From: Scatophagus argus
Lineage: Eukaryota > Chordata > Actinopteri > Scatophagidae
Length of the DNA stretch: 64,000 bases
Reading direction: 5' to 3'
Assembly: GCF_020382885.2 (NCBI RefSeq)
Contig: NC_058496.1
Coordinates: 222,501-286,500 of the forward strand
Made by a program: the position numbers and the translations under genes. Positions 36,401 to 39,400 of the stretch are shown one piece after another. How positions within the stretch are numbered: position 1 is the first letter of the stretch; every line of letters begins with the position of its first letter. Under the pieces are notes generated by a model that searched no databases, was not told the origin of the DNA, and saw only the letters and a list, made by a program, of their open reading frames with translations.

Positions 36401-39400
36401 GGAGCAGACGAATGTGACGGGCAGTCAGAATGACCAAAGTGGGACAGGTACAGGTGTGACACCAGAGGGAAAGAGAGTTCGGAAGCCAAGTCAGAGGGCC
36501 AGAGCTCTTCAGGAAGCTGCTCAGGCCAAGGTGAGATCTGTTTGCATCATTGCGGTGGTTAATGAATACACTTGAAGATCTTGTCAATAAGATGCTCCTT
36601 CAGTCTTAAAATGTGTCAACGTGTGTGTCGTGCTGCCTTCAGGTAGGAGTTCACAAACTGATGGAGAAACAGAGACAAACATCATTCTGAGGCATTTATT
36701 CAGACACAAAAACACCAACTGAAAATTTCCCTCCTTCTCCTACAGCCAGAGCTCATGGAGGCCTCACCTTAAACAAAGCGTAGATCTGTCATAACCGTCA
36801 AGGGTTTCTGTGTATTCGTTCATGAGCTAATGATGCCGCAGAGAAAAAATTACACCAGCAATGAGCTGCTCGGTTTGAGATTGTAGCTTTGCTTTACGGC
36901 ACGACTTGGCGTGTTTTTATCAGCCATGTGGTCAAGAGAGGCGTGTTTGCCAGGGTATCCCAAGTATGTGCCCGCTGAGATGCCATTTAAATGGTGTGCA
37001 GACTCCGCCTACTTGGCGAACTGCTCCTCGCTCCTCACCTGAGTCAGAAGTCATTCTGTTCTGCCATATGATTCTTTGAGGAGCAGGGACACATGGGAGT
37101 GGCAGAGTGTAGCCTTTTTAGCGGATGATGAGCCCCCTTGATGGATATCAGTTATTGATTGGACTCTGCACCTGATCAGACACATTACAACATCAGACAG
37201 ATAACAGATTAAACTGAAATGCGGTGAATGCGGAAGACTCATTCCAAGATGGCGCCAAGGACAGACGCCCTGGTGTTTTGGTGCGCTCTGTTCTGTCTGT
37301 TTTTGTGTAAATATTGTGTGTCCGCATGCTCTTACACCAGAGAAGAGCTCATGAACATCAGATACTCCACACCCGTTGACTTATCTCCAGTTTTTTTAGC
37401 ATCTGCTGCGGATTTACTCCGCATTTTAGTCAAAAAAGTGAGGCGCCGACGCAGAGGAAAGCGAGCGGGTGCACTCGTGTGCCTCCGCACCGTTACCTGA
37501 GATCTTTCTCTCTAACGCACGCTCACTCTGCAACAAAATGGATGAGCTGGCACTGCTGTTGAGAAATAACAGGGACTTTTCTTCATCTTGTGTTTTGTGC
37601 TTCACGGAGACGTGGCTTTGTGGACAAATACCGGACTGCGCGCTGCAGTTCCAACTTCTCCGAGCGGATCGTCACAAGGAACTTTCCGGCAAAACTAAAG
37701 GTGGAGGTGTCTGTTTTTACATCAACAGCGGCTGGTGTACCGATGTGACTGTGATCTCCCAGCACTGTTCTCCTGCTCTGACTCTAAGAGTTAAAGCAAG
37801 GCGTCTGGACTTGTGAAGATTTGGCTTGAAGGCGTTTCGCTGCTAATACAAGCCGAGTCATCAGTTCTGAAAAAACTGTCTGGTGGGGAACAAAGGTGTA
37901 TATATGGTGTATATATTTGTTCCCCACCAGACAGTTTTTTCAGAACTGATGAAGCTGCTTGGATTAGCAGCGAAACGTCTTCAAGCCAAATCTTCACAAG
38001 TCCAGACGCCTTGCTTTAACTCTTTGAGTGAATATGACCTGGATGACTGAGAATCTCCACAGATATGTTCTCCTGCTCTGGAATACTTGTTCATACACTG
38101 TAAGCCGTTTTATTCTCCGCGTGAGTTTGCTTCATTCATTCTGGCCGATGTTTACATCCCGCCGAGTGTGGACGTGCACGAGGCTCAGCGCGTACTCGCG
38201 GATCAGGCACTGTGTGTGGAGCAAACATATCCAGACTCCTTAGTTATTGTCCTTGGTGACTTTAATAAAGGAAATCTGAGCCAAGAGTTACCCAAATACA
38301 ATCAGCTGATCAAATGCCCGACCAGAGAGGAGAACACTCTGGATCACTGTTACACCACAGTAAGCGGAGCATATCGTGCAGTGCTCTGCGCCGCTCTTGG
38401 TCTGTCTGACCACGTCATGGTCCACCTGAGCACCATCACCCGGGACCTCAAGTGGGAGCTGACCATCAGCTCCCTCATCAAAAGGGCCCAGCAGAGGATG
38501 TTCTTTATGTGTTCTTTTATCTTATTCTTCTATTATATGTTACTTACATTCTATGTTTGCACCAATCACTAAGACAAATTCCTGGTAATGTGAAACCTCT
38601 TCACTTACATGGCAATAAAGACGATTCTGATTCTGATTCTGATTCAGTTCTGATTCTGAAATGTGTCAGGTCTTATATTTTGATTTCAGATTCACCATTT
38701 GAAGAAACAACTTCATTTCTTCATTTGCTAGAAAGATTTTTCTCTTCCTGATCTGCGACTTCCCCCTTTAAATGTTATTGCGGTTAAACTCAGAGTGTTT
38801 GTCTGCTCGTGTCCTGTGGGTTGCACCTCCTCTCAGTCGCTCTCCTCCTTGTTTGACTTCTTCTGTGTTTTTTGCTTCCAGGTTGAAGCCAAGAAGAAGA
38901 GAACTTCTTCTCCTTGTAAGAAGCGCTCTCGTATGTCTCACTCAAAGGAGGAAGTTGTTGTACAGAACCAGACTGTGACTCCGCAGCCCGGGTTTTGTTT
39001 ACATCCTGGTCAGTCCATGTGGGCCATGACGTCTGGTGGGCTGGTCCAACTAGCAGAGGCCCCACCCCTAGGCATGCAGCTGGCTTTAGTGCCAAGCCCA
39101 GACCCACATCAGTCAGTCACACCCCCTCTGCAACTCAAAGCTGGCAGTCCACAAACCGTCCTACCTAAACCCACTGCAGTGTCTGTCCCCGTAAATGTGC
39201 CTGGAGACAACCAACCCCATCCTCTTCATGTCCTGCCCACCAGCCCCTCCAAGTCCCTCCCCCCCACCATCATCCTGCAACCTGTCCCAAACCCTGTCTC
39301 CTCCCCCCTGGCCAACAGCCAGCCCCAGCCTGCACCAAAGCTCTTCATGCCATATAAGGGTACGGTCAGAACGGACCCTGCAGCGCCCCCTCCCCTACGG

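What the first reader, a model, noticed from the sequence alone, without database searches (positions are those of the whole stretch)
37766..38080. Fold-back insert with two hammerhead-like cores and a 15-bp target duplication
The insert splits a LINE, is flanked by exact TGTTCTCCTGCTCTG copies, has two 108-bp arms head to head, and each arm contains CTGATGA-hairpin-GAAA. Penelope-like elements are known to carry hammerhead motifs in their terminal repeats. A short, fully palindromic copy with a one-sided tail could be a non-autonomous retroposon built from two such ends.
Basis: partly seen in the sequence, partly recalled or inferred. Interest (0 to 1): 0.75.

Follow-up and report, generated by a model that had tools for sequence, protein, structure and literature searches.

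The report
Fold-back Penelope retroelement insertion
A 285-base hairpin-shaped insert in a fish-like genome is a short, two-ended copy of a Penelope-like jumping gene, and its sister copies suggest that the enzyme copies RNA of one source onto both sides of one chromosome break, starting from two different points.

Summary
In detail: exact 15-bp duplications (37766-37780, 38066-38080) flank two 114-nt arms, 95% complementary, plus a one-sided 36-nt tail, inside a LINE reading frame. The arm is the 3' end of a Penelope-like element (PLE): longer relatives encode RT and a GIY-YIG-like endonuclease, and the ORF starts inside a minimal hammerhead. Only the direct arm's hammerhead is intact; the inverted arm's is broken and on the other strand. 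A propagating fold-back family is not supported: 24 of 57 fetched arm loci are fold-backs, and those mapped differ in arm lengths. In 19 of 24, duplications of 12-19 bp bound both outer ends (0 of 552 mispaired controls). In all 24 one end carries the tail (near ORF +117) while the other stops about 36 nt earlier, with a few exceptions in exact position. Arms of one insertion share alleles (173/178, versus 62% re-paired). Inverted pseudo-LTRs with a one-sided tail are published for PLEs, so the structure is a known kind. My reading: both strands of one staggered break prime reverse transcription of RNA from one source, at two start sites. That mechanism is inferred; self-priming remains possible.

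The parts
37766..37780 (.). left target-site duplication TGTTCTCCTGCTCTG
   Evidence: exact copy at 38066-38080; score 15, best of 552 mispaired controls 7
37781..37894 (-). inverted, tail-less arm: 3' region of a Penelope-like element ending at ORF +81
37825..37870 (-). damaged hammerhead motif (stem II broken, GCC instead of GTC)
   Evidence: L048:4910-4955:- in alignment A1; fold lacks stem II; private changes at arm positions 38, 39, 41, 47
37895..37915 (.). inner junction between the two arms; AT-rich, repeats GTGTATATAT, and as RNA can form a short hairpin
37916..38029 (+). direct arm, same element region in sense
37940..37985 (+). intact minimal hammerhead motif: CTGATGA 37946-37952, stem II 37954-37958/37967-37971, GAAACGTC 37972-37979; predicted cut after 37979
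   Evidence: stem II fold; 51 of 51 exact-core instances in held loci pair 5 of 5, some places held twice; pair counts
37949..38047 (+). start of the PLE ORF (ATG inside the hammerhead; 33 codons then TGA in this copy)
   Evidence: direct reading; related frame in L017 and L027; compare Anolis PAc in PMC11167929
38030..38065 (+). one-sided 36-nt tail, ORF +82 to +117
   Evidence: direct arms reach arm position 148-150 in 40 of 40 copies found with a query that contained the tail; sequence beyond differs between copies
38066..38080 (.). right target-site duplication
37442..37780 (+). host LINE endonuclease ORF, left part, ending CSPAL
38066..38569 (+). host LINE ORF, right part, CSPALEYL..., same frame once the insert is left out

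Best explanation
This is a doubly primed, strongly 5'-truncated insertion of a Penelope-like (Poseidon-type) retrotransposon. Shown: it is the 3' region of a PLE; a 15-bp target duplication bounds it; each outer end is an end of the element's 3' region, one at ORF +117 and the other at +81; arms of fold-backs carry the same source alleles; the pattern recurs at other loci with different truncations. Inferred: the endonuclease made a staggered break with 3' overhangs of about 12-16 nt, and both overhangs primed reverse transcription of sense RNA from one source, one strand from the outer start site and the other from the inner one. Each cDNA stopped early, the two facing 3' ends were joined with 0-5 nt overlap or short filler, and gap filling made the duplication and the fold-back. 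The hammerhead is inherited from the element's ORF start; in this copy it is probably silent, because the transcript would fold into a long hairpin.
For: Family: 49 matches in 40 scored of 746 first-look candidates in the own genome. L020, which carries the arm, has an upstream ORF fragment with a weak GIY-YIG match. A related subfamily has an 857-aa ORF with RVT_1 (E 4.4e-11), a GIY-YIG-like piece (E 1.6e-4, 22.4 against cut-off 22.6) and tandem units. Fold-backs: 24 of 57 fetched arm loci. Duplications: score >=10 in 19 of 24 against 0 of 552 mispairings. End rule: 24 of 24 have a tail-bearing end and an end that stops earlier; in the tail-neutral list, 10 of 10 duplication-supported fold-backs. 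Younger subfamily: 5 of 5 inverted partners seen stop at 154-158 of 192 (coordinates only), and L054/L055 is a head-to-head pair of about 5.9 kb with a 13-bp duplication and a tail at one end. Arm alleles: 173/178 own against 62% re-paired, 0 of 2000. Of 22 inner junctions, 8 are near-blunt and 8 have 3-23 nt filler. PMC11167929 (main text read): a purified PLE protein cleaves and extends both strands and starts reverse transcription internally at two adjacent sites, with the tail between them.
Against: Identical source alleles in both arms fit self-priming as well. One junction (L041) is palindromic by eye, and the window's own loop can form a short hairpin as RNA, though the repeated GTGTATATAT also occurs in L024, which I did not score as a fold-back. 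Five of 24 fold-backs show no duplication. The inner end is not perfectly fixed: L018 stops at arm position 91, L026 near 107, L009 and L029 at 119-120, L030 at 113 or 126 by reference. Most of the sample came from a tail-containing query. For the younger pairs a match to 192 does not show an end; for at least one (C19:20097578) it is an internal pLTR before an ORF. PMC11167929 saw no difference of start site between strands in vitro. Nothing was tested at the bench.
Confidence: 0.65

Rival explanations
1. Snap-back self-priming: one strand (an antisense template in the 2013 proposal) folds back at a palindrome and copies itself, giving head-to-head arms.
For: Proposed for Adineta PLEs from palindromes at inverted junctions (PMC3846280 Discussion). 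Arms share alleles. L041 has a palindromic junction, and the window's loop can form a short hairpin.
Against: A copied arm should run to the same outer end, yet all 24 fold-backs end at two different points. By eye I saw no palindrome at most of the 22 junctions examined, and 8 have 3-23 nt of filler.
Confidence: 0.22
2. One reading: a non-autonomous fold-back retroposon that spreads as a unit.
For: Fold-backs are common (24 of 57 loci) and compact. Two younger places on C19 have the same fold-back geometry.
Against: Arm extents differ between the fold-backs mapped. Solo truncated copies with duplications coexist (for example L017, L070). The two C19 places are 18 kb apart and may be a local duplication; at least one belongs to an element with an ORF.
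Confidence: 0.05
3. Two independent insertions: a second PLE copy landed head to head beside the first.
For: PLEs can insert next to or in their own copies; tandem units exist here.
Against: One duplication bounds the whole pair in 19 of 24, and arms share alleles.
Confidence: 0.04
4. A DNA transposon (MITE or foldback element) with long terminal inverted repeats and a chance hammerhead match.
For: Inverted repeats plus direct duplications look like one.
Against: RT and GIY-YIG-like coding relatives, variable 5' truncation, one-sided tail, conserved hammerhead pairs.
Confidence: 0.01

Closest known systems
PAc, Poseidon of Anolis carolinensis (Penelope/Poseidon clade; PMC11167929, main text read)
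   Same: ORF starts inside a hammerhead; two adjacent internal RT start sites with the tail between them; main start 111-118 bp into the ORF (here the tail ends at +117); GIY-YIG plus RT; tandem units; both target strands extended in vitro.
   Different: Different host, seen here as genomic copies only. The rule of one tail and one tail-less end per fold-back and the shared arm alleles are not in the main text I read.
Pen2a and other Penelope families of Adineta vaga (PMC3846280, passages and Discussion)
   Same: [quoted passage not shown] 31-bp tail on one of the inverted pLTRs; 9-bp target duplication.
   Different: There the inverted pLTR is an add-on to long copies and is explained by self-priming on an antisense template. 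Here the whole insertion can be just the two ends.
Animal retrozymes (non-LTR retrozymes with type I hammerheads; PMC7229834, abstract and passages)
   Same: Short, non-coding, hammerhead-bearing.
   Different: Those are short tandem repeats expressed as circular RNAs; this is a head-to-head fold-back with PLE ends and no tandem monomers.
L1 twin priming (recalled)
   Same: Second target strand primes on the same RNA and gives a head-to-head inversion.
   Different: In L1 the two segments do not overlap; here both cover the same 3' sequence.

Membership tests
Penelope-like elements (Penelope/Poseidon type) | Reverse transcriptase ORF in relatives that share the arm | tested here: met
   L053 857-aa ORF, RVT_1 E 4.4e-11, in a related subfamily; L020, which carries the arm at 96%, has a related ORF fragment with YVDDT
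Penelope-like elements (Penelope/Poseidon type) | GIY-YIG endonuclease C-terminal to RT | tested here: inconclusive
Penelope-like elements (Penelope/Poseidon type) | pLTRs from tandem units | tested here: met
   tandem repeat across L057/L053: the pLTR-ORF start recurs about 2.8 kb apart (places), in the related subfamily
Penelope-like elements (Penelope/Poseidon type) | Minimal hammerhead in the pLTR near the ORF start | tested here: met
   51 of 51 exact-core instances with 5 of 5 stem II pairs; pair counts and covariation score above all 500 shuffles, though the number of doubly changed pairs is reached by 32 of 500
Penelope-like elements (Penelope/Poseidon type) | Optional tail on one end, inverted pLTRs, target duplication | tested here: met
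Hammerhead ribozyme, Rfam families | Match to an Rfam hammerhead model | tested here: not met
   No hammerhead match at E<=10; PLE types usually lack helix III (PMC6155905 passage)
Hammerhead ribozyme, Rfam families | RNA self-cleavage | not testable with these tools
   needs an in vitro assay
Non-LTR retrozyme | Tandem monomers with a hammerhead in each | tested here: not met
   single head-to-head pair; no further arm in the window
Cut-and-paste DNA transposon | Fixed terminal inverted repeats shared by copies, no RT relatives | tested here: not met
   arms truncated at different points in different copies; RT relatives

The most novel reading that the evidence does not exclude
PLE integration is an obligatory two-site reaction: one ribonucleoprotein bound to RNA of one source makes a break staggered by about 12-16 nt and primes both 3' overhangs, one only from the outer start site (near +117) and the other only from the inner one (near +81). 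Fold-back insertions are the record of both primings surviving, and ordinary solo copies, with or without tail, are those in which one cDNA won. The tail would then not be optional variation but the mark of which start site made that end.
Probability: 0.38. Interest if true: 0.68.

Novelty: new member of a known kind. Interest (0 to 1): 0.42.

Why it matters
How Penelope-like elements integrate, and where their inverted pseudo-LTRs and optional tail come from, is unsettled in the papers I read (self-priming proposed in 2013; both-strand extension and internal starts shown in vitro in 2024). Minimal fold-backs such as this one keep both ends of one event together. They let the question be tested by counting: one start site or two, one template or two, copied arm or second priming. 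The counts here favour two start sites on RNA of one source.

Tried and rejected
Rfam scans for a hammerhead gave only sub-threshold hits to other families, mostly hairpin (miRNA-type) models. Using arm distances to show two different templates: ranks uninformative; allele tests show one source instead. One search forced non-element sequence into the alignment (L046 distorted) and is replaced. A first look for the L054/L055 ends hit wrong places, corrected. PDB sequence searches with the L020 and L053 proteins: no match at E<=0.01. Pfam on the 33-aa ORF start: none. An empty-site copy of the LINE was not obtained because the search did not complete. A tail-neutral search of the younger subfamily did not complete. 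L031 and L061 have unclear inverted pieces and were left out of the 24 fold-backs.

Full report
Observation. The insert is as described. A 15-nt exact direct repeat lies at 37766-37780 and 38066-38080, and inverted arms lie at 37781-37894 and 37916-38029 (114 nt, 95%, 21 nt apart). A 36-nt stretch (38030-38065) follows only the right arm. The strand folds at -215.4 kcal/mol, z -26.5. The host sequence is a LINE-type endonuclease ORF: the left part ends CSPAL at 37780 and the right part begins CSPALEYL at 38066 in frame. The joined protein matches Exo_endo_phos (E 2.9e-4, 21.1 bits against a curated 24.5, residues 25-207) across the join; the halves alone do not at E<=0.01. So the insert plus one duplication is 300 bp added to a single site.

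Family. The window lies in a 570.7-Mb genome of 48 contigs. The direct arm has 49 matches among 40 scored candidates of 746 first-look candidates. I fetched all 40 scored copies. A query without the tail gave 20 further loci, of which I fetched 17. Copies share the 3' end and are truncated at many different 5' points, as reverse-transcribed copies are. L020 carries the arm at 96% and, just upstream, an ORF fragment of 367 aa with YVDDT and a weak GIY-YIG match, E 0.0066. That protein gives 112 matches from 111 scored of 1124 candidates. They include a younger subfamily at about 70% identity with an 857-aa ORF (RVT_1 E 4.4e-11). Its C-terminal piece matches GIY-YIG at E 1.6e-4, 22.4 bits against a cut-off of 22.6, although the whole protein lists RVT_1 only. 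Units stand in tandem (L057/L053). In that subfamily 27 of the 40 scored candidates are identical over 192 bases, so it was active recently. I file these as Penelope-like elements; the name Poseidon rests on the Anolis comparison below, not on a database match.

Hammerhead. The direct arm reads stem I GAA, CTGATGA, stem II GCTGC/GCAGC, GAAACGTC, stem I TTC, with ACGT where helix III would be. The element's ATG lies inside CTGATGA. In held loci, 51 of 51 instances with an exact core have 5 of 5 stem II pairs (some places are held twice, for example window and L048). On 36 rows that I chose from 70 hits of a loose pattern, leaving out chance hits and near-duplicates, 96.9% of cells pair against 94.0% in shuffles, six cells have changes on both sides, and the covariation score beats all 500 shuffles. 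The number of doubly changed pairs (2) is reached by 32 of 500, and the rows are related, which inflates such tests. The window's inverted arm has a broken stem II and GCC for GTC, with four private changes within ten nucleotides. Rfam finds no hammerhead. [quoted passage not shown]

Fold-backs recur. Of the 40 copies, 21 have an inverted arm upstream (L047 was seen only); of the 17 later copies, 3 do (L058-L060). L031 and L061 were left out as unclear. The later 17 were fetched with only about 0.2-0.7 kb of upstream sequence, so distant partners could be missed. The inverted and direct parts reach different distances into the element in each of the loci mapped (20, 3; for example L009 -558 and -71, L027 -392 and -1057, window +1 and about -9). 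Inner junctions were examined in 22 fold-backs: 8 are near-blunt or overlap by up to 5 nt, 8 have 3-23 nt of filler, and 6 are not resolved by the reference copies used. Some filler looks copied from nearby sequence (L019, L036), and one junction is palindromic by eye (L041). The window's own 21-nt loop repeats GTGTATATAT and can form a short hairpin as RNA; the same repeat stands in L024, which I did not score as a fold-back. I conclude that these are separate events, not copies of one fold-back element. A possible exception lies in the younger subfamily: C19:20097578 and C19:20116051 have the same geometry (33-nt inverted piece, 40 nt away) and lie 18 kb apart.

Target duplications. A best-match score of 10 or more between left and right outer flanks occurs in 19 of 24 fold-backs, against 0 of 552 mispaired flanks (maximum 7). 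The reported lengths are 12-19 bp with at most one mismatch, some of them including letters of the arm or of flank beyond a mismatch. The window's is 15 bp, exact. The five without are L009, L027, L029, L030 and L036. Solo truncated copies with duplications also exist (for example L017 and L070).

End rule. In all 24 fold-backs one outer end carries the tail (reaching arm position 148-150, ORF +115 to +117) and the other stops earlier. That earlier end lies mostly at arm 110-116 (ORF about +77 to +83). Exceptions are L018 (91), L026 (about 107), L009 and L029 (119-120), and L030 (113 or 126, depending on the reference copy). In L060 the tail is on the inverted arm. Because one search used a query with the tail, the cleaner sample is: there 10 of 10 duplication-supported fold-backs are mixed (L014, L018, L019, L023, L026, L028, L048, L058, L059, L060). 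Among the solo copies of that list that I hold, 9 have the tail and 14 (L061-L074, L061 uncertain) do not. If ends were independent at that rate, about 48% of pairs would be mixed, and 10 of 10 has a chance of about 6e-4 (my arithmetic; rough, small sample).

Younger subfamily. Among 40 scored candidates, 5 inverted partners appear beside a facing copy, all 100% identical to the query, and all 5 stop at 154-158 of 192, the tail-less point, while the facing copy matches through 192. This is from coordinates only, with a query that contained and ended with the tail, so a match to 192 does not show that the facing copy ends there. For C19:20097578 it does not: an ORF follows (C19:20095099-20096145, 880 aa), and the next 3' end at C19:20094732 also matches through 192. 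That place is therefore the classic arrangement of ORF, two direct pLTRs and a short inverted pLTR. With letters in hand, the pair L054/L055 (about 5.9 kb, head to head) has a 13-bp duplication TATATATAATGAT, a tail at the L055 end and none at the L054 end.

Source of the arms. At 23 non-CpG variable sites, arms of one fold-back agree in 173 of 178 comparisons; re-paired arms agree in 62%, and 0 of 2000 permutations reach the observed value. At all 32 sites the figures are 255 of 276 and 67% (23 of the 24 fold-backs; L047 not included). In an earlier count on 19 fold-backs, 71 of 81 differences between own arms are private and 10 have both states common. So both arms come from one source sequence. 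This argues against random mixing of RNAs but does not by itself separate two primings from self-copying.

Comparison with what is known. PMC11167929 (main text read): the purified Anolis PLE protein cleaves and extends both strands; reverse transcription starts internally at two adjacent sites, most often in a stem-loop 111-118 bp into the ORF; the 'tail', a 30-40 bp extension, corresponds to the stretch between the two sites; [quoted passage not shown] no difference of start site between strands was seen. Here the tail end is +117, the tail is 36 nt, the ORF also starts in the hammerhead, and the predicted cut follows +31. PMC3846280 (passages and the whole Discussion): an Adineta Penelope copy has an inverted pLTR 37 bp shorter, a 31-bp tail described as optionally present on one of the inverted pLTRs, and a 9-bp duplication; the authors favour self-priming on an antisense template. 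The structure is therefore already known in kind. I did not find the one-of-each end rule across many insertions, or the allele test, in what I read. My literature searches were made; most subscription papers are not held, and three PLE papers that I asked for were not available.

Mechanism. A break with 3' overhangs of the duplication's length gives two primers facing each other. If each primes on sense RNA at the element's 3' start sites, both outer ends are 3' ends, both cDNAs are truncated independently, and joining their 3' ends gives this head-to-head insert with a duplication. Different start sites on the two ends explain the one-sided tail; RNA from one source explains the shared alleles. 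Self-priming explains shared alleles but not two different outer ends. I put the two-priming reading at 0.65 and the stricter 'always one of each site' reading at 0.38.

Limits.

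Noticed in passing
window 30809-31663, 33705-36575, 38795-39793: The LINE and its insert lie between ORFs that may be exons of one gene; the first ORF has a Myb DNA-binding domain, two others scanned have no Pfam match. It resembles SNAPC4 (label recalled, not tested).
   Followed up: partly
window 37442-38659: The host LINE has an endonuclease ORF that stops shortly before a (GATTCT)n array at 38623-38659, with no room for an RT: probably an internally deleted copy.
   Followed up: no
window 37848-37857: Four private transversions within ten nucleotides in the inverted arm, in and beside hammerhead stem II and its loop; might be one complex event.
   Followed up: no
L053/L057 (C17) and places: A related PLE subfamily has long open ORFs, and 27 of 40 scored 3' ends are identical over 192 bases: recent activity.
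   Followed up: partly
C19:20097578-20097842 and C19:20116051-20116315: Two places with the same fold-back geometry 18 kb apart; local duplication or a copied fold-back.
   Followed up: no
L019, L032, L036 inner junctions: Filler at the junction looks copied from neighbouring sequence, as in polymerase-theta-type end joining (interpretation recalled).
   Followed up: no
L040, oriented positions 3354-4993: About 1.6 kb without a match to the element copies used lies between the arms of a fold-back with a 14-bp duplication: later insertion or captured DNA.
   Followed up: no
C18:16276169-16284408: Four arms on one strand within 8.3 kb: a possible tandem PLE array.
   Followed up: no
L015 and L033 (C19, about 18 kb apart): These two copies share about 1.9 kb of collinear upstream sequence, so they may be one insertion duplicated with its surroundings.
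   Followed up: no
window 63257-63281 (-): A third match to the hammerhead pattern without an evident stem II; probably chance.
   Followed up: partly
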